Of a DNA stretch of 25,263 nucleotides, positions 6,040 through 25,118 are shown piece after piece. Below the pieces are notes generated by a model. The model had not been told where the DNA came from. It worked only from the letters and a program-made list of their open reading frames with translations, and made no database searches. Position 1 is the stretch's first letter. Each line of letters starts with the position of its first letter. A program made the position numbers and the translations under genes. Source of the stretch: a virus; the IMG/VR virus record IMGVR_UViG_3300028188_000025, positions 1 to 25,263 of that record; one strand, given 5' to 3'.

Positions 6040-7116
6040 ATGAAAGTATATTACATAAGTTCAAAATATGATGGCTGTAATTATCTGCGATGCCAATTAC
6101 CAATGTACGTAAACGGTTGGAACGGAACAAGGACAGATAATAGTGGCAAAGAGAAGCCAATGAAATTCATCCTGCCAGAAATAATGGACGCAGACATAGT
6201 AGTATTTCACAGGGCAGATACAATACAACATCATCAGCTTGGAAGAGAGTTGAAAAAAATGGGTAAGAAGATTGTATTCGATAATGACGATACATATAAG
6301 CTAGACGATGAACACCCATTTCACATGCTAGATGAAAATGGCTTCAAAGAAAATAAGAGAAGAAAGAATAACTTAATAGATAATTTTATTCTCAATTCAG
6401 ACTTAGTTACTTGCACAACAGAATTCTTAGCAGACGAATATAGAGAGATAAGTCCAAACGTAGTCGTCTTACCAAATTGTGTAGATCAATTCGATTGGGA
6501 TGAACCAATAAGGAACGAGGGCGACAAGGTTCGCATCGGAGTAGTTGGTTCAGTAGCATATAATCATGACTTTCAACACGTCAAAGATTATATAACTGAA
6601 TTAAACAAGAGAGATGATGTACAGCTTGTCTTGTTCGGACTTCATGGAATAAAACGCCAAAAGGAAAATAGACTCGTTAGAAGAGTATATAGAAAAGAAT
6701 TTGAGTTTTGGAACAACCTTGAAGGGCTTGAACATGTAGAGTGGTGTGAATTCAAAGACTATTTTAGAACATTGAATGAACTGAAATTAGACTTGATGAT
6801 TATACCAAGAGCTGAAAAAGATTTTAACAGGGCAAAGTCCAATGTTAAATTCTTGGAAGCAGCGATGCTAGAGATACCTGTTATAGCACAGGGGTTTACA
6901 ACAAATGATTCTCCATACGACAAAGATCTAAACGGAAAGAATGGCATTCTCATAAAGGACAATTCCAAATGGATGGAAGAGACTGTCAAGCTTATAGAGG
7001 ATAAAGATCTTAGAAGAAAAATTGGTAAAGAAGCTAAGCAATACGTATTGGAAAATTATTCAATAGATAAACATGCCAATAGATGGCGTGAAGAATATAA
7101 TAAATTATTAAAGTAA
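6040..7116 (+). CDS. Glycosyltransferase (GT-B fold, GT4-like)
   Basis: A 358-residue enzyme expected to transfer a sugar from an activated donor. It has two Rossmann-like halves: residues 1-160 with an AD(I/V)VVFHRAD strand region and FDNDDTY; and from IGVVGS (166-171) onward a donor-binding half. The region KSNVKFLEAAMLEIPVIA (266-283) fits the conserved donor-site stretch of GT4-type enzymes, with E273 in the expected acidic position. No signal peptide or membrane segment is seen, so it is cytoplasmic. Its start follows AAAAGC without a Shine-Dalgarno site, exactly like its structural neighbours, 14 bases after the preceding stop. A place inside the virion operon suggests glycosylation of virion or host-surface components late in infection; the acceptor is unknown. 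Confidence 0.8.
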   Translation: MKVYYISSKYDGCNYLRCQLPMYVNGWNGTRTDNSGKEKPMKFILPEIMDADIVVFHRADTIQHHQLGRELKKMGKKIVFDNDDTYKLDDEHPFHMLDENGFKENKRRKNNLIDNFILNSDLVTCTTEFLADEYREISPNVVVLPNCVDQFDWDEPIRNEGDKVRIGVVGSVAYNHDFQHVKDYITELNKRDDVQLVLFGLHGIKRQKENRLVRRVYRKEFEFWNNLEGLEHVEWCEFKDYFRTLNELKLDLMIIPRAEKDFNRAKSNVKFLEAAMLEIPVIAQGFTTNDSPYDKDLNGKNGILIKDNSKWMEETVKLIEDKDLRRKIGKEAKQYVLENYSIDKHANRWREEYNKLLK

Positions 7117-7490: not shown

Positions 7491-8358
7491 TGCTTGGGGG
7501 AAGGTGTGGTCAACAATTAAAGACCACACTTTCAAGGTATCTGTGGACAATCAAGTTGAGTTCCCTGAAATAGTAATCCCAGAGGTTAAGATTCCAGAAC
7601 AACTTGATACCAGAGAAGAACTAACAAACATTGTTAACGCTATAATAAAGCAGACACAGGACCTAAAGATAAGCCCTGATACTTCTGCTACAAAAAAAGA
7701 ACTGTTAGATACCTTAAAGGAAATATCTGAAAGACTTAATGTTGATGAAGAAGAAGAGACAGATGATGAGCAAGAACTAGCCACTGTAAACGAAATTAAG
7801 GCTCTAAGAGACGACTTGAGTGCTATAGCAGGTAAACTACCTAAAACAGATTTAAAGCCCGTACAGAGCCAAATAGAGGCTCTCACGAAGACACTAGACT
7901 TCAGTGGTCTAAAGAAGTTCACAAGATTCACAGATATTAGGGTATTCATCAATGAGAAACAATTTGAGAAACTAGCCAAATCTATGGGTAGCGTTATAGC
8001 TACATCTGGTGGCTCAGGTCAAATCAAGAATGCCTCTGGAGTAATCAGTGATGATAATCCATTAGCGGTGAAAGTTGATAGTGAAGGTGGAACAGCTACA
8101 GCAACTGAGGGTTCTGGTGCAATTACAGTTGGTAGTTCATCTACATCTGTAGTATCAGCAAATGCTGATCGTAAAAGAATTATAATGGTTAACGATAGTG
8201 ATGAACCAATCTATCTTGCTTATGGAGAAGCCGCTGTAATGAATCAAGGAATAAGGTTGAATGCTTCTGGTGGAGCAATGATTGATGATATTTGGTTAGG
8301 TACAATATTTGCTATCTGTTCATCAGGTTCAAAAGAACTAACTTATATTGAAATCTAA
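7453..8358 (+). CDS. Virion decoration or head-tail structural protein (putative)
   Basis: A 301-residue protein in two parts. Residues about 1-170 are helical, with EFPEIVIPEVKIPEQLDTRE near the front and coiled-coil-prone charged stretches. Residues about 185-301 form a Gly/Ser/Thr-rich beta domain (SGGSGQIKNASGVISDDN, then RKRIIMVNDSDEPIYLAYG and LTYIEI at the end) like the small beta-sandwich domains at the ends of phage decoration and adaptor proteins. The start overlaps the previous gene by 38 bases, and the TAA of this gene overlaps the next ATG by one base. No catalytic residues are evident. Confidence 0.55.
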   Translation: MENLVKIKILINNAWGKVWSTIKDHTFKVSVDNQVEFPEIVIPEVKIPEQLDTREELTNIVNAIIKQTQDLKISPDTSATKKELLDTLKEISERLNVDEEEETDDEQELATVNEIKALRDDLSAIAGKLPKTDLKPVQSQIEALTKTLDFSGLKKFTRFTDIRVFINEKQFEKLAKSMGSVIATSGGSGQIKNASGVISDDNPLAVKVDSEGGTATATEGSGAITVGSSSTSVVSANADRKRIIMVNDSDEPIYLAYGEAAVMNQGIRLNASGGAMIDDIWLGTIFAICSSGSKELTYIEI

Positions 8359-12335: not shown

Positions 12336-12588
12336 ACAGAAATTAAAATGCAGTAAGAAAAAGAATAAGCATCACATCAGACCTAAATCAAGGGGTGGCG
12401 GTGGTGGTGAAAACCTCGTATTACTGTGTATGGCATGTCATAACAAACTTCATCATGATTTCGGAACAATGACTCCAGATGAAATTATTGCCTTTCTAGT
12501 AACTCATTACTGGAATGACCAATGGTTCTGGGTTAAGAAATCACTTGATAAGTTTTCACATATTAACAAGTTAGGAGAAAAAGTATGA
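12313..12588 (+). CDS. HNH endonuclease
   Basis: A 91-residue, strongly basic HNH nuclease. The motif is complete: HH (H20, H21) in KHHIRPKSRGG, N34 in ENLVLLC, C39 plus C42-H43 in CMACHNK, and HH (H47-H48). The pattern is HHIRPxSxGG-NLVLLC-xxCHNxLHH with a short Gly linker (GGGGG). HNH proteins of this size nick or cut DNA and may assist packaging, act as homing-type nucleases, or degrade DNA. The start is a GTG placed right after GGAGGAA. It is the only gene in the window to stop with TGA, overlapping the next ATG by 4 bases (ATGA). Confidence 0.85.
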   Translation: MKKKHKGKQKLKCSKKKNKHHIRPKSRGGGGGENLVLLCMACHNKLHHDFGTMTPDEIIAFLVTHYWNDQWFWVKKSLDKFSHINKLGEKV

Positions 12589-13385
12589 AAAAGCAGAAAG
12601 TAGTAGGTAACGATAAGATCGGCAAACTTATCCGTTGCAACAACCACACTCTAAAGCCCAATAAAAAGGGTTACGTAGAGATTATCTTCTGGGGAGACGT
12701 TCATTATGGACACCCTCAGTGTGACATCAAAAAGGCACTTGCCATGCTTGATTACTGCATTAAGAACGACATCTATGTTATAGGCATGGGTGATATGCTC
12801 GAGTGCGGTACTCGTTTATCCATTGGCGATTCTGTTTACAAGCAGAATCTCAACCCTCAGGAACAAATGGAAGATATGCTTGAATTTTTAAAGCCTATCG
12901 TTGACTCTGGCTTACTACTTGGTCTCCACTCTGGAAACCATGAAGACAGAATTTCAAACATGTCTAGTCTGAACATAACCAAGAACATGTGCAGAGAGCT
13001 TGGAGTTCCCTACTTGGGCGGTGCTATGTGGCACAAACTCAAAGTTGGGAAAATCAACTACTCACTCTATACCATGCACGGTGCTGGTGGTGCTCAGTTC
13101 GTTCATACCAAACTTGGTAGGGCAGTGCAAATTGCCAACAACTTCTGGTGCGATGTATTCGCAATGGGACACGTACACGCCAAGGCTTGTGAGCCAATTG
13201 AGAGACAAAGGCTCAACATCCGTAACAAGGTTGTAGAGCAATTCAAGATGTACATTGTACTAACTGGTTCTTGGCTTACTTATGACAGGTCCTACGCTCA
13301 GACTTCTGGGTATGGTCCTGCCACAATAGGTAGTCCAAAGATTAAGTTATTTTCTGAAAGACGGAAAATTCATGGATCGACATAA
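12585..13385 (+). CDS. Calcineurin-like metallophosphoesterase
   Basis: A 266-residue enzyme with all five metal-site motifs: GDVHYGH (37-43), GMGDM (67-71, D70), GNHED (117-121), MHG (H165) and GHVHA (195-199). The family hydrolyses phosphoester bonds in nucleotides, DNA ends, RNA or phosphoproteins. The substrate cannot be inferred. It is cytoplasmic, with no signal peptide or membrane segment. It is joined to the HNH gene by a 4-base overlap and preceded by AGGAG. By eye it has a higher G+C than its flanks (about 40-50 percent in several 60-base lines) and uses more CTC and TGC codons. Pairing with an HNH nuclease suggests a role in DNA end processing. Confidence 0.88.
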   Translation: MKKQKVVGNDKIGKLIRCNNHTLKPNKKGYVEIIFWGDVHYGHPQCDIKKALAMLDYCIKNDIYVIGMGDMLECGTRLSIGDSVYKQNLNPQEQMEDMLEFLKPIVDSGLLLGLHSGNHEDRISNMSSLNITKNMCRELGVPYLGGAMWHKLKVGKINYSLYTMHGAGGAQFVHTKLGRAVQIANNFWCDVFAMGHVHAKACEPIERQRLNIRNKVVEQFKMYIVLTGSWLTYDRSYAQTSGYGPATIGSPKIKLFSERRKIHGST

Positions 13386-15349: not shown

Positions 15350-17608
15350 ATGGCAAACACCAAATCATTAGATTTAGAACTTGGCTCAAGCCAATATGCG
15401 AGTATAACTGATGGTAGTCAGACTGGTTTAGATATTACTACAGACTTTACTATAGAGTTTTGGGCTGATTTTGAAACTATAACAGGCTCTACAATTATAA
15501 ATAAATATGAATCTGGAGTAGGAGGATATTTAGTTGAACTTAGTAGCGGTAGTAATCTTAAAATATTATATTCAGCAGATGGTACTAATAAATCAGAAAG
15601 TTATACAACTGCTGCTATATCTGGTACTGGATGGCATCACTATGCTATTGTGGTAGATATTTCTGCACCAGCAGACACAATTATATATATAGATGGAGTT
15701 AGCCAAACAGTAACTGATAATTTAACAGCAGCTACTTCATTAGTTGGAACATCTGAACCTTTCCAAATAGGTGCGAATCAAACGCCTGCAGAATATTTAG
15801 ATGCAAAATTAGAACATGTCAGAGTATGGAATGATATTAGAACTGCCACAGAAATAGCTCAATATATGTTTCAAGAACCAGCAGTAGATGAAGCTGGATT
15901 AGTCTCTTGGTGGAAATTTGATGATAATTATTTAGATGAAACCTCTAATGATAACGATTTAACTGCTAGTGGTTCTCCTGTATTTAGCACTGATGTTCAA
16001 TGGACATTTGACGGTACAAAAGAAGAAATAGAACATTGTGTAGATGATGATACTGTAGCTTTATGGCATATGAATGGTGCAGCTGCTTCTGCTGCAAAGA
16101 CAGACAATGCAGAAGGCACTGCAGCTTTAGATTTAACAGAAGTAAACACACCAACTGCTGCAACTGGATTTGATGGTGAAGCTAATGGTGCTTATGAGCT
16201 GAATGGTAGCACTCAATATTTAGAAATCACTAATGATGCTGATATTTATGGAACAACAGGCTCGATAAGTGCTTGGATATATTTAGATATAGGTAGTACG
16301 AATTATGGAATTTATACTGATACATCAGCAACATTAAATGCAATACATGTACAATTTCTTGTAAATGCAGATGATAATTTAGTGTTCCATAAATATGATA
16401 ATTCTGACAATCAATCAGTAATAGGTAACATCTCTTTAAATACAGAACAATGGTATTATGTTAATGCTGTCTGGGAAGATGGAGAGGGTCTCAAGGTATA
16501 TGTAAATGGAGTATTAGACAATACAGGTGATATAACAACGGGTGCTAGTGGACATACTGCTTCTGATAATATTAACATAGGCAGAAGATATAATGGTTTG
16601 TATCTTAATGGTAAATTAGATGAAGTATCTTTATCAACTCGTGCTAAATCAGCAGAAGAAATAGCTAAATATTATAGTGGTACAGTAAGTGCGAAGTATT
16701 ATAGTGGAGCTGGCGATGGCTTTGTTGTAAATACAAATGTTACAAGTTGGGCAGCTAGTCGTAGTGATGCTACTGGTGATACAGCATATCCTGTAGCAGC
16801 TAGTGATGTATCGGCTATATTCAACCAACTATCAAACAATCAAATACATAGGGCATTTTATCCATTTGTTACAAGTACATTGCCAGATGATGCAGAAATA
16901 ACACTTGGTCAAGTAGCTATAAAATCTTCTGCGACAGCAGGAGCTAATGCAGACACTGTAGATGCAGACCTAGTATCTAATTCACAGGCAAGTACAACAA
17001 CACTTACAACAGCAGACTATGACCAACTCGGCACAACTGTATATGACTCAATAGCATTTGCAGATTGGGCAGTTGGATATAATATATTTACTTTAGACGA
17101 AACAGGACTAGCAGAAATAGATGCAACTGGTAACTCACAGTTTGGTATTAAGTGCTCAAGAGATACAGATAATAGTGTACCAACTGGACAGAACTATATA
17201 GCTTCTTATTTTTCAGAATCCACTGGCAACGAACCTTATCTATGGGTAGAGTATATTGCCGATAGTGGAGTTTCTTTCTCAGTATCATCAACAATGTCTA
17301 TATCAGAATCAGCATTACAAAATACTAATTATTCTGTAAGCGATACAATATCAATGTCTGAAAACATATCAGTTCTTAAAGGATTAGCATTTGCAGTATC
17401 AGATACAATATCAATAGCTGGTAGTTTTTTAGGAAGCCTAACTGCTAAAGTAAATAGTACATTAAACATTACAGATAATTTAAAAAGATTTACTTTATTA
17501 TGGACTGATAGAACTAAACCAACAACATCTTATTCCGATAGAAGCAAACCATCAACGTCTTATTCAGATAGGAGTAAGCCAACAACTAATTGGACTAATA
17601 GAACTTAA
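15350..17608 (+). CDS. LamG (lectin-like) surface/fibre protein with C-terminal repeats
   Basis: A 752-residue surface protein. Two laminin-G/pentraxin-type (ConA-like) domains are seen: about 5-170 (DFTIEFWAD, GWHHYAIVVD, IYIDGVSQT, VRVWNDIRTATEI) and 235-440 (GSISAWIYLD, QWYYVNAVWEDGEGLKVYVNGV, LDEVSLSTRAKSAEEI). A beta-sandwich (about 455-635) with FVTSTLPDDAEI, PYLWVEY at its end, follows. Then four about-18-residue Ser-rich repeats (643-716, YSVSDTISMS type), and lastly three 10-residue repeats (718-747) plus a half copy. Such proteins bind host surface sugars. The start abuts the previous stop. Confidence 0.75.
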   Translation: MANTKSLDLELGSSQYASITDGSQTGLDITTDFTIEFWADFETITGSTIINKYESGVGGYLVELSSGSNLKILYSADGTNKSESYTTAAISGTGWHHYAIVVDISAPADTIIYIDGVSQTVTDNLTAATSLVGTSEPFQIGANQTPAEYLDAKLEHVRVWNDIRTATEIAQYMFQEPAVDEAGLVSWWKFDDNYLDETSNDNDLTASGSPVFSTDVQWTFDGTKEEIEHCVDDDTVALWHMNGAAASAAKTDNAEGTAALDLTEVNTPTAATGFDGEANGAYELNGSTQYLEITNDADIYGTTGSISAWIYLDIGSTNYGIYTDTSATLNAIHVQFLVNADDNLVFHKYDNSDNQSVIGNISLNTEQWYYVNAVWEDGEGLKVYVNGVLDNTGDITTGASGHTASDNINIGRRYNGLYLNGKLDEVSLSTRAKSAEEIAKYYSGTVSAKYYSGAGDGFVVNTNVTSWAASRSDATGDTAYPVAASDVSAIFNQLSNNQIHRAFYPFVTSTLPDDAEITLGQVAIKSSATAGANADTVDADLVSNSQASTTTLTTADYDQLGTTVYDSIAFADWAVGYNIFTLDETGLAEIDATGNSQFGIKCSRDTDNSVPTGQNYIASYFSESTGNEPYLWVEYIADSGVSFSVSSTMSISESALQNTNYSVSDTISMSENISVLKGLAFAVSDTISIAGSFLGSLTAKVNSTLNITDNLKRFTLLWTDRTKPTTSYSDRSKPSTSYSDRSKPTTNWTNRT
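17501..17605 (+). repeat. 30-bp coding repeats (3.5 copies) at the end of the lectin-like gene
   Basis: Codes for WTDRTKPTTS, YSDRSKPSTS, YSDRSKPTTN and WTNRT: an aromatic residue every 10 positions, then DR and KP. The copies differ at silent and conservative positions, showing selection or repeated duplication. Located at the very C-terminus of the lectin-like protein. Confidence 0.8.
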
Positions 17609-21809: not shown

Positions 21810-24800
21810 ATGGCATTTAGCGGAAGAGGAGAAAGGGAGCCAAGTAAGTTTACTACATTCCAATACTATGACAATCTTGCTAAACAACATGGTGTTCCTG
21901 AACCAGAAGTAAAAAAGCCCTCCTTATTTAGAAGAACAATAGACATACTACAAAGACCTAACTACGCTGTAGCTGGGTTTGCTGGTGCATTCACAGAGAG
22001 AGGTAAGGAAGCTGGAGAGAATCCATTTATAGAAGCATGGAAAGGTTTAAAGGGAGAGGATAAAGAAACATTCTCAGATGTTCTTGGTGATGTTGGAGTA
22101 GAAAACAAGTATGCTAAAGGCATAGCTGGCTTTGCTTTAGATGTAGTGTTAGATCCAACAACTTGGTTTGGTGGAGCATTTGTTAAGGCTGGTGCTAAAG
22201 TTGCTAAGGTTGGTCTTAAGGCTGGTGCTGCAACTGGAAAAGCAGTAGGACTTGGCAGACAAATAAGAGCCATAGAGACAACAGCAAGTGATATAGGGAC
22301 AGCCCTAAAGAGAGGCTTCCAAAGAGGATTCGGAACATCAACTAAGTTAACTAAACTTAAAGGAGTGTCAGATGATGCTCTTGGCAATTACAAAGTAACA
22401 GAGAAGGGTGTATTTGAAAGAAGTATAAATGAAGCTGGTGAAGAAGTATTTGAAAAGAAGGTTGGTATAGTAGAGAATGGCGTTATCAAAGACCTTAAAG
22501 GAAAGAAAGAAATAGGTTCTTTTGAAAGTGTTGTTGGTGGTATTCAAAAATACTTTAGTAAAGCCATTGGTAAACCAGAAGATTATGATGAGATATTAGG
22601 AGAAACTGGAGACCTATTTAAAGGATATGATCAGAAAACATTAGATAGTGCATTTGATATAATGGCTTATAACACTAAGCTTGAAAGTGGTGTATTAAAA
22701 GGTGCTGGGAAGATTGATGATATTGTATACAGGGGACAGCCAAAAGACTTTAAATTTAGAAGAGCTGTTTCAGATGTTTCTTCTGAAGATAATATATTAA
22801 TTGGTAAAGGTGTATTTACAACAACAAATAAAGATATAGCAAAAACTTATGGAGAAAATATTTCTGCATTTAAAAAACCAACAAAAAGAATACTAGATAT
22901 ATCCAATGCTAATGAAAAAGATTTAAGAAAAATAATGCCAGATAGCTTTTTTGAGGAAAGAAGGCTTGGTGGTTTAATTCATAGACCAGACGATACCTTT
23001 ACATCAACATATAAGACATATAAAGAAGCTGTTAAAAACGGTGATATTAAAGATGCAGAAGATATATTGATGAATAACATCATTGAAAAGTTTACTGGTG
23101 GTAAGGGTGTTGAAGAGCTTGTATCTGGTGGTTCATCAGAAATTGGTAAATTGAAATCTGCAAGAGATGCTGCTGCAAAATTTCTACAAAAGAAAGGATA
23201 CAACGTAATCAAACATCAGGGTGGAATAAGAGCTGGTGGAAAAAAATTACACGATGTTTACATAGCACTATCAGACGAAGCATTACAACCAATATCAAAA
23301 ACAGCAAAACAATTATACAAAAGTGGGGAAGGTGAAGTGGCTGCTGTTGTAAAACTAATGAAAGAACTTGGACAGAAGACTGGTAAACAACTTGCAGAGG
23401 CTAAGGGTATCAAGGGCAAGGAATGGTATATCCCACTTGTAGATAAAAACAAATTAAAACAAATCAAAAAGTATAATGATAGATACGAGATACTTGGAGA
23501 TAATCTTGCTAAGGAATTAAAAGGTGTTGTCCCAGAAAAAGACTTACTTAGAGACCCAGTAGAACTATATTCAAGAGCACGATTTGAATTAACTCATGAT
23601 GTTCTAAGACAGGAGACAATGGCTAATATGATAGAGGCTTTTGGCAAGAAGGCAGGAGCATTTACCAGTGAAGCAGAAGCAAGGGCAGCAGGATTTAAAC
23701 CAATCTTTAGGAATGGTTCTGAGGAATTAGTTGGTATGACTGGTGATAAAAAAGCTTCTAAGCTTCTTGGCTACTTACAGAATACAGATGCAAAGTTTGT
23801 AGATAATTCATTATTCCCAGAGTTTAAGACAGTTGATATGTTGGCTAAGGCTAGTGGATATGACAAGTTCACCTCAGTATTTAAAGAGTTGGTTACAGCT
23901 TGGTTCCCTGCATTCCATGTAAGAAATATGTTTTCTGGTTATGTACAGAATTATTCTGTGTTAGGAGCTAGAGCATTTGACCCAACTACAATCCCACAGG
24001 GCATAACAGTTATGTCTAAGAAACTAACAGAGAAGGCTGGATTAGATGGTGTAGCTGGTCATACATTTGGAGAGATAAGAGACGCACTAATAGATAAGTT
24101 TGGGTACTCGTCAAGGTACGTTGTTGATATAGATAATATCACAAGCACCATAGAGGCTGGTACAAAGTTTAAGAAATTAGCAAAGCTTCACCCTAGACGT
24201 GCTGGTAACTGGATTGAAATGAATCAGAAAGCCAATGCAACTATAGGAGCACTTAAACAAGGCAAGTCATTAGATGAAGCTCTCAACTTAGCAGAGAAAG
24301 CAGGATTCGATTACAGTAAGATAACACAATTTGAATCAAAGATAATGAAACGAGCTATTCCTTTCTACACATTTGCAAGGAAGAATGCTGCGTTACAAGC
24401 ATCAACATTTACTAAACATCCAGAGAGAATACTAAATCAAGTTAAGTTTACCAACATGTTATCTAATGTATTTGGTGGAGGTAAGCCAACGGAGGAAGAC
24501 TTAGATGGTGTTCCACCTTGGGCATTAAATGCTATGGGATTCAAAGTACAGGATGGTAAATATATTTCTAAGTTTGGATTACCAATGGAAGAGTTTGTAG
24601 AGAGGATAGCTAATCCAGTAAAGACAACTCTTACAAGTCTAAACCCTTTAATGAAATATCCACTAGAAGCAAAGACTGGATTTGATTTCTTTAGAGAGAG
24701 ACAGATTAAAGATATAACAAGTGTTAAAAGTTTAACTGCTGAAATACTAACACATGAGAAAACACCTAAGTGGTTAAAGGATGCTTTCCATGTTACAAGT

Positions 24801-25118
24801 TATGTTGGCAAAGATGGTAAGAAGAGATACAATGCTGACCCTGAAAACCTACACAAGTTGAGGAACTTACCAACATCAAGGTTTCAAAGTACAGCTGATA
24901 AGATGTTTGAAGATGGCATAACAAATGTTACGCCTGCAAAGATAGTATCATTCCTTATAGGAGCTCAACTCTATGACATAGATCAAGAGTTACAAGCTAA
25001 CTTCGCAGAGAAGGATTTAATAAAGGCATACCAAGAAGAACTACAATCAAGGGGCATTATATACGACTACTCAATGTTCCCAGAAAGTAAGACTACTAAC
25101 TTTGAATATAAGGAATAA
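21810..25118 (+). CDS. Large internal virion protein with ADP-ribosyltransferase-like domain
   Basis: An 1102-residue protein. Residues 1-150 are Gly/Ala/Lys-rich with GKEAGENPFIEAW. A domain at about 300-495 resembles the ADP-ribosyltransferase (ART) fold: DDIVYRGQ (R308), GKGVFTTTNKDIAKTYG (333-348), KRILDIS, then GYNVIKHQGG and HDVYIALSDEAL as the closing strand. The catalytic glutamate is not evident, so the domain may be a divergent or inactive ART. Residues 680-1000 hold features seen in phage ejection-type proteins: WFPAFHVRNMFSGYVQNY and FDYSKITQFESKIMKRAIPFYTFARKNAALQ. It is the last gene, followed by a terminator. The protein may be packaged and injected with the DNA; that is inference. 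Confidence 0.6.
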   Translation: MAFSGRGEREPSKFTTFQYYDNLAKQHGVPEPEVKKPSLFRRTIDILQRPNYAVAGFAGAFTERGKEAGENPFIEAWKGLKGEDKETFSDVLGDVGVENKYAKGIAGFALDVVLDPTTWFGGAFVKAGAKVAKVGLKAGAATGKAVGLGRQIRAIETTASDIGTALKRGFQRGFGTSTKLTKLKGVSDDALGNYKVTEKGVFERSINEAGEEVFEKKVGIVENGVIKDLKGKKEIGSFESVVGGIQKYFSKAIGKPEDYDEILGETGDLFKGYDQKTLDSAFDIMAYNTKLESGVLKGAGKIDDIVYRGQPKDFKFRRAVSDVSSEDNILIGKGVFTTTNKDIAKTYGENISAFKKPTKRILDISNANEKDLRKIMPDSFFEERRLGGLIHRPDDTFTSTYKTYKEAVKNGDIKDAEDILMNNIIEKFTGGKGVEELVSGGSSEIGKLKSARDAAAKFLQKKGYNVIKHQGGIRAGGKKLHDVYIALSDEALQPISKTAKQLYKSGEGEVAAVVKLMKELGQKTGKQLAEAKGIKGKEWYIPLVDKNKLKQIKKYNDRYEILGDNLAKELKGVVPEKDLLRDPVELYSRARFELTHDVLRQETMANMIEAFGKKAGAFTSEAEARAAGFKPIFRNGSEELVGMTGDKKASKLLGYLQNTDAKFVDNSLFPEFKTVDMLAKASGYDKFTSVFKELVTAWFPAFHVRNMFSGYVQNYSVLGARAFDPTTIPQGITVMSKKLTEKAGLDGVAGHTFGEIRDALIDKFGYSSRYVVDIDNITSTIEAGTKFKKLAKLHPRRAGNWIEMNQKANATIGALKQGKSLDEALNLAEKAGFDYSKITQFESKIMKRAIPFYTFARKNAALQASTFTKHPERILNQVKFTNMLSNVFGGGKPTEEDLDGVPPWALNAMGFKVQDGKYISKFGLPMEEFVERIANPVKTTLTSLNPLMKYPLEAKTGFDFFRERQIKDITSVKSLTAEILTHEKTPKWLKDAFHVTSYVGKDGKKRYNADPENLHKLRNLPTSRFQSTADKMFEDGITNVTPAKIVSFLIGAQLYDIDQELQANFAEKDLIKAYQEELQSRGIIYDYSMFPESKTTNFEYKE

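What the first reader, a model, noticed from the sequence alone, without database searches (positions are those of the whole stretch)
22707..23294. ADP-ribosyltransferase-like domain inside a putative ejected internal protein
Residues 300-495 of the 1102-residue protein show the order YRGQ, GVFTTTNKDIAKTYG, RILDIS, GYNVIKHQGG and a closing strand, resembling ART folds found in other phage polyvalent proteins. T4 injects its Alt ADP-ribosyltransferase with its DNA, so this might be an analogous early effector. The catalytic glutamate is not obvious and the domain may be degenerate.
Basis: partly seen in the sequence, partly recalled or inferred. Interest (0 to 1): 0.6.

Follow-up and report, generated by a model that had tools for sequence, protein, structure and literature searches.

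The report
ADP-ribosyltransferase module inside phage protein
A large structural protein of an uncultured tailed phage carries, in a swappable slot, an enzyme-type module of a known kind (a phage "polyvalent" ADP-ribosyltransferase) that is probably delivered with the DNA to modify host proteins, although its active site is altered and its activity is untested.

Summary
Residues ~300-506 of the 1102-aa ORF (22707-23327) form a divergent ADP-ribosyltransferase (ART) of the phage "polyvalent" kind. Pfam and PHROGs do not recognise the window sequence, but two relatives aligned to it by BLASTP (E 7e-7, 2e-8) pass Pfam's ART-PolyVal cut-off. A separate ART profile matches the region (hhalign E 4e-6) and not two control stretches. 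The AlphaFold model (pLDDT 68) finds ART-PolyVal phage proteins, PARPs, RES toxins and the anti-CRISPR ART AcrIF11. The active-site positions read R308 - F336/T337 - D482. The three closest relatives have His at 308 (YHG), as in the H-Y-D family; Arg occurs in more distant members. D482 is His in one relative. There is no obvious catalytic Glu, so activity is open.

New here: the domain is a clean ~199-residue insertion. The closest homologue (848 aa, 48% identical) lacks it. In the same slot other homologues carry a different ART lineage, an acetyltransferase-like domain, or nothing. The carrier lies in the virion structural module, so delivery with the DNA is plausible but inferred. A new member of a known kind (polyvalent proteins).

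The parts
21810..25118 (+). 1102-aa ORF that carries the domain; last complete gene of the fragment, downstream of tail-fibre-like and structural ORFs
   Evidence: the ORF listing; neighbour families; position of homologues
21894..22514 (+). conserved N-terminal part of the carrier protein (residues ~29-235)
   Evidence: iterated HMM hits in most full-length homologues
22707..23327 (+). ART-PolyVal-like domain, residues ~300-506; a net insertion of ~199 aa relative to homologue L009
   Evidence: BLASTP, hhalign, structure and fold search, insertion mapping
22731..22733 (+). R308, strand-1 active-site position (H in the closest relatives, R or H in the wider set)
   Evidence: alignments, L127
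22815..22826 (+). F336-T339, strand-2 active-site region; F336 aligns with Tyr of YFT in relatives, T337 with S of FST in L089
   Evidence: alignment A6; placement against diphtheria-type toxins by reading the A6 profile alignment
23250..23261 (+). H481-D482-V483-Y484, closing strand where the third catalytic residue (E/D) is expected
   Evidence: alignments; L001 HDVY, L127 HHVY
23337..25091 (+). conserved C-terminal part (residues ~510-1094), mostly helical, no known fold found; weak LPD38 signal in a homologue

Best explanation
The domain is a divergent ART of the phage polyvalent type, carried as a replaceable cargo in the middle of a large virion-module protein of a probable short-tailed phage. 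Most likely the carrier is packaged in the virion and enters the cell with the DNA, where the ART module uses NAD+ to modify a host protein (for example a transcription, translation or defence component) early in infection. Shown here: the ART relationship, the insertion into a slot, and other cargo in the same slot of homologues. Inferred: virion location, delivery, catalysis and target. The altered active site (R308, F336/T337, D482) leaves open whether it is active as ADP-ribosyltransferase, acts only as NAD+ hydrolase, or has lost catalysis.
For: L001 protein: BLASTP E 7e-7 to the window domain, PF18760 ART-PolyVal 33.8 bits against a cut-off of 31.2. L127 protein: E 2e-8 over 188 aligned columns, PF18760 31.9 bits. 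hhalign of the window domain with an 18-sequence ART profile that excludes L001/L005: Prob 86.8, E 4.3e-6; controls Prob 1.2 and 0.2. 11 of the 23 aligned members (A6) match PF18760. Foldseek against viral models: 9 hits at E<=1e-3, the functionally named ones 'PolyVal ADP-Ribosyltransferase' or 'ART-PolyVal-like', best 1e-5. VIA-align: ranks 2-17 are tankyrase, PARP2, PARP4, PARP13, RES-type toxins, AcrIF11, RhsP2 and Tpt1, all ART-superfamily to my knowledge, Z 4.3-5.7. A6 profile against PDB sequences: best hits are diphtheria-type toxins, E 0.0026 and 0.02; PARP12 at 0.7. Slot: L009 lacks residues 300-506; L011, L081 and L083 carry ARTs of another lineage between conserved ends of the same carrier; L014 carries a domain matching annotated phage acetyltransferases, E 6e-11. 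Published: ARTs are the commonest protein-modifying domains of polyvalent proteins and GNATs also occur there (PMC5512222).
Against: No direct Pfam, PHROG or PDB sequence hit for the window domain itself. First active-site residue is R where the closest relatives have H; the second is F/T where Y is typical; no Glu; D482 is H in L127, so the third position is not conserved. The model is middling (pLDDT 67.6) and was built on an alignment that already assumed ART homology, so the fold result is not fully independent. No evidence of packaging or injection; one PHROG that matches 9 of 32 carrier homologues is labelled 'tail fiber protein; host specificity'.
Confidence: 0.62

Rival explanations
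1. The domain is a degenerate ART that has lost catalysis and now serves as a binding or structural module (host-factor binding, packing, or spacing within the virion protein).
For: Two of three H-Y-D positions are substituted (R308, F336), the third (D482) is not conserved in L127; the slot can be empty (L009, L010, L012, L013, L015), so the domain is dispensable for the carrier.
Against: Other members with R in strand 1 keep a Glu in the closing strand (L080, L088, L089, L094, L097), so R at this place is compatible with an intact-looking ART; F keeps an aromatic residue and D an acid. The domain has kept its order of motifs despite low identity.
Confidence: 0.27
2. The carrier is an external tail or host-recognition protein and the ART module is not injected.
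For: phrog_19395 'tail fiber protein; host specificity' matches 9 of 32 carrier homologues; tail-fibre-like genes lie nearby.
Against: An NAD+-using enzyme has no clear use outside the cell; ARTs and GNATs in polyvalent proteins are read as delivered effectors (PMC5512222). The carrier shows no lectin-like or collagen-like domain and its C-terminal half is predicted helical.
Confidence: 0.1
3. The resemblance is chance and the domain is not an ART.
For: No direct family hit; low pLDDT in loops 27-43 and 151-160 of the model.
Against: Independent profile match with clean controls, two Pfam-recognised intermediates, and ART cargo in the same slot of homologues.
Confidence: 0.05

Closest known systems
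ART-PolyVal (Pfam PF18760), ADP-ribosyltransferases of phage polyvalent proteins, Tox-ART-HYD2 clade (Iyer et al. 2017, PMC5512222)
   Same: Fold matches, motif order (YxG; GxxFT; closing strand near HDVY), carried as one domain inside a large phage protein, related by intermediates that pass the Pfam cut-off
   Different: Not recognised by the Pfam model itself; R308 in place of His, F336 in place of Tyr, long helical insert before the last two strands
T4 Alt (Alt/VIP2 clade, R-S-E)
   Same: Phage ART that acts from the virion early in infection; R in strand 1
   Different: Different ART clade, no sequence relation detected here; Alt has the R-S-E site, the window domain lacks the Glu
AcrIF11 anti-CRISPR ADP-ribosyltransferase (PDB 6KYF; PMC12421852)
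   Same: Best solved-structure Foldseek match (E 0.02, prob 0.98); small phage ART with a variable helical region, Asp needed for activity
   Different: Stand-alone small protein with His and Tyr at the first two positions (in AcrIF11Pae2); the E-value is not significant on its own
LPD38 (PF18857), phage-only polyvalent domain
   Same: One carrier homologue shows a weak match in the C-terminal region
   Different: Below cut-off; the window protein itself shows no match

Membership tests
ART-PolyVal / Tox-ART-HYD2 | Sequence match to the family model PF18760 above its cut-off | tested here: not met
   Window domain: no PF18760 match; its relatives L001 and L127 do pass
ART-PolyVal / Tox-ART-HYD2 | Homology to recognised members | tested here: met
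   BLASTP E 7e-7 and 2e-8; hhalign E 4.3e-6 with negative controls
ART-PolyVal / Tox-ART-HYD2 | ART fold | tested here: met
   Foldseek (viral) and VIA-align matches dominated by ARTs; limited by pLDDT 67.6 and an alignment that already held ART-PolyVal members
ART-PolyVal / Tox-ART-HYD2 | Active site H (strand 1), Y (strand 2), D (strand 5), as described in PMC5512222 | tested here: not met
   Window has R308, F336 (or T337), D482; only D retained
ART-PolyVal / Tox-ART-HYD2 | NAD+-dependent modification of a target | not testable with these tools
   Needs a biochemical assay
Phage polyvalent proteins | Large multidomain protein combining effector domains with non-catalytic domains | tested here: met
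   1102 aa with conserved N and C parts and ART between; homologues swap ART, GNAT-like or no cargo
Phage polyvalent proteins | Packaged in the virion and delivered with DNA | not testable with these tools
   Only gene position in the structural module
T4 Alt/VIP2 (R-S-E) clade | R-S-E active site | tested here: not met
   R308 and T337 could stand for R and S, but no Glu at the expected place of the closing strand (HDVYIALSD)

The most novel reading that the evidence does not exclude
A conserved virion protein family of short-tailed phages acts as a delivery chassis with one fixed slot, into which phages swap alternative host-modifying enzymes (two ART lineages, an acetyltransferase, or nothing), and the window's ART works with a non-standard R-F-D (or R-T-D) site, possibly as an injected anti-defence enzyme comparable to AcrIF11.
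Probability: 0.2. Interest if true: 0.6.

Novelty: new member of a known kind. Interest (0 to 1): 0.4.

Why it matters
Polyvalent ARTs are among the commonest predicted injected effectors of phages, yet the searches run here turned up no polyvalent-protein ART tested for activity. This case gives a small, well-bounded domain with natural controls: the same carrier with and without the module, and with a different enzyme in the same slot. That makes the idea of a virion chassis with swappable effectors testable, and adds an active-site variant whose activity would show how far the H-Y-D site can drift.

Tried and rejected
Direct Pfam, PHROG and PDB-sequence searches of the window protein: nothing significant (JAK1 kinase hits at E 0.1 are chance). 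The Salmonella phage tail-fibre hit at E 0.7 was treated as chance. Searching viral and genome contigs with the whole 1102-aa protein found no relative; only the C-terminal profile did. The HMM of the L011-type ART lineage does not hit the window domain even with filters off, so the window ART and the L011-type ARTs are distant; the link rests on the hhalign match and on L001. The VIA rank-1 match to a cyanophage A4 pre-ejectosome chain (Z 6.8) was not used as evidence: its aligned residues are scattered over 943-1607 and Z is in the range of common arrangements. The C-terminal model (pLDDT 76.5) gave no usable PDB match, so it neither supports nor excludes an ejectosome role. Paper searches found nothing on ART-bearing ejection proteins of short-tailed phages beyond the polyvalent-protein literature. 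No Pfam match was found for the L014 insert; its acetyltransferase reading rests on annotated phage hits. The full-length family profile against PDB sequences gave only an implausible eukaryotic hit.

Full report
Observation. The window is a 25,263-base virus record. The window also encodes a terminase large subunit, a major head protein, a glycosyltransferase and an Mre11-like exonuclease, and a protein with a laminin-G-like domain. A podovirus assignment rests on the names given to distant relatives and is therefore probable only.

Is it an ART? The window sequence alone matches no Pfam, PHROG or PDB-sequence entry. Intermediates give the link. A scan of viral contigs found L001, whose 342-aa protein passes the ART-PolyVal cut-off (33.8 against 31.2 bits) and aligns to the window domain by BLASTP at E 7e-7. 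A second scan with a small alignment found L127, a 214-aa protein next to phage structural and terminase-like genes (my reading of the translations); it also passes the cut-off and aligns at E 2e-8 over 188 columns. These E-values are for single comparisons after scans that yielded 30 and 349 pattern-matching stretches, so a correction of a few hundred-fold is fair; they stay near or below 1e-5. Independently, an 18-sequence profile of another ART lineage (A9, without L001 or L005) matches the window domain by hhalign with E 4.3e-6 over strands 1-2; two control stretches, one from the same protein and one from the neighbouring ORF, score 0.045 and 0.35. L001/L005 match that same profile at 6e-12.

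Structure. AlphaFold2 with a 23-row alignment gave mean pLDDT 67.6, pTM 0.65, with a long helical insert and weak loops. Foldseek against viral models returns nine hits at E<=1e-3, those with a functional name being PolyVal ADP-ribosyltransferase or ART-PolyVal-like. Against PDB only AcrIF11 (6kyf, E 0.02, probability 0.98) stands out. VIA-align puts tankyrase 2, PARP2, PARP4, RES-type toxins, AcrIF11, RhsP2, Tpt1 and PARP13 at ranks 2-17, Z 4.3-5.7. Each Z is modest, but nearly all upper rows being one superfamily is not expected by chance. Because the alignment contained ART-PolyVal members (11 of 23), this is support and not independent proof. The same alignment's profile finds diphtheria-type toxins (E 0.0026, 0.02) and, more weakly, PARP12 by sequence.

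Active site. The published description of polyvalent ARTs is His (strand 1), Tyr (strand 2), Asp (strand 5), grouped with the Tox-ART-HYD2 clade (PMC5512222). In the window these are R308, F336 (with T337 next to it) and D482. L001, L005 and L127 have His at the first place. In the wider alignment both YHG and YRG/FRG occur; several R-members keep a Glu in the closing strand (L080, L088, L089, L094, L097). L127 has His where the window has D482. By established knowledge of the R-S-E ARTs, R and an S/T-rich second strand go together, so R308-T337-D482 is a possible working triad; that is inference.

Architecture. A profile of the C-terminal part found 65 viral loci. Iterated HMMs show conserved N-terminal and C-terminal parts in most full-length members. 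The closest homologue, L009 (48% identical over the C-terminal part), aligns across the region with a net 199-residue gap at window residues 300-506, flanked by clearly matching sequence (MAYNTKLESGVLKGA / EGEVAAVVKLMKELG against MFKNKSIERNIREGA / EGDVAKAVGVMKEIG). L010, L012, L013 and L015 are also short. L011 and L081 carry an ART of another lineage between the same conserved parts; L083 has one further towards the C-terminal end, within the C-terminal match. L014 carries a domain that matches annotated phage acetyltransferases at E 6e-11. The ART segment has a lower G+C (31.7%) than its flanks (38.2% and 37.0%), which fits acquisition but is weak evidence. ARTs and GNATs are both listed as polyvalent-protein domains.

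Delivery. Homologues sit at the end of the structural gene block, after the 'phage stabilization protein' gene in two deposited genomes and beside tail-fibre-like genes in others. That fits a virion protein. Injection is inferred from the polyvalent-protein model and from T4 Alt; it is not shown. The helical C-terminal part matched no solved structure.

Verdict. A real, divergent ART-PolyVal-type domain in a polyvalent-type carrier; a new member of a known kind with an altered active site. It works, if it works, like a polyvalent ART; strict membership by the H-Y-D signature and by the Pfam cut-off was tested and not met. The cargo-slot comparison is the most useful new element. Whether it is an active enzyme is undecided: I put catalysis at about even odds.

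Noticed in passing
L075, L076, L078, L080, L105, L126 and others (alignments A6, A9): Large phage proteins carry highly divergent small domains, mostly ART-like, between near-invariant linkers (EARKYKSAEEFVKA before, KTKSQLTDIYNQA after), sometimes in tandem (L075 248-436 and 441-620; L126). The linkers are far more conserved than the domains, which suggests a cassette exchanged by recombination at the linkers.
   Followed up: partly
L080 4137-8735 and neighbours: A phage with several genes related to the window's (37-71% identical segments to the proteins at 8358, 10403, 18282, 20201) has, after the homologue of 20201, an unrelated 1533-aa protein that again carries ART-like domains: carrier replaced, cargo type kept.
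   Followed up: partly
L014 ORF 4409-8533, residues ~530-720: Acetyltransferase-like domain in the same slot as the window's ART.
   Followed up: partly
window 6040-7116: Glycosyltransferase-like ORF (phrog_7162, E 4.5e-39) within the head/tail gene block.
   Followed up: no
window 12585-13385: Mre11-like DNA repair exonuclease (phrog_7339, E 1.7e-38) embedded among structural genes.
   Followed up: no
window 15350-17608: 752-aa ORF with a laminin-G-like lectin domain (PF13385, E 2.4e-44, two stretches), a likely receptor-binding fibre.
   Followed up: no
window 22707-23327 (ART model against PDB 9k3a_B): Highest VIA-align row is a cyanophage A4 pre-ejectosome chain (Z 6.8, 148 residues scattered over 943-1607); could be a common arrangement or an ART-like part in an ejectosome protein.
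   Followed up: no
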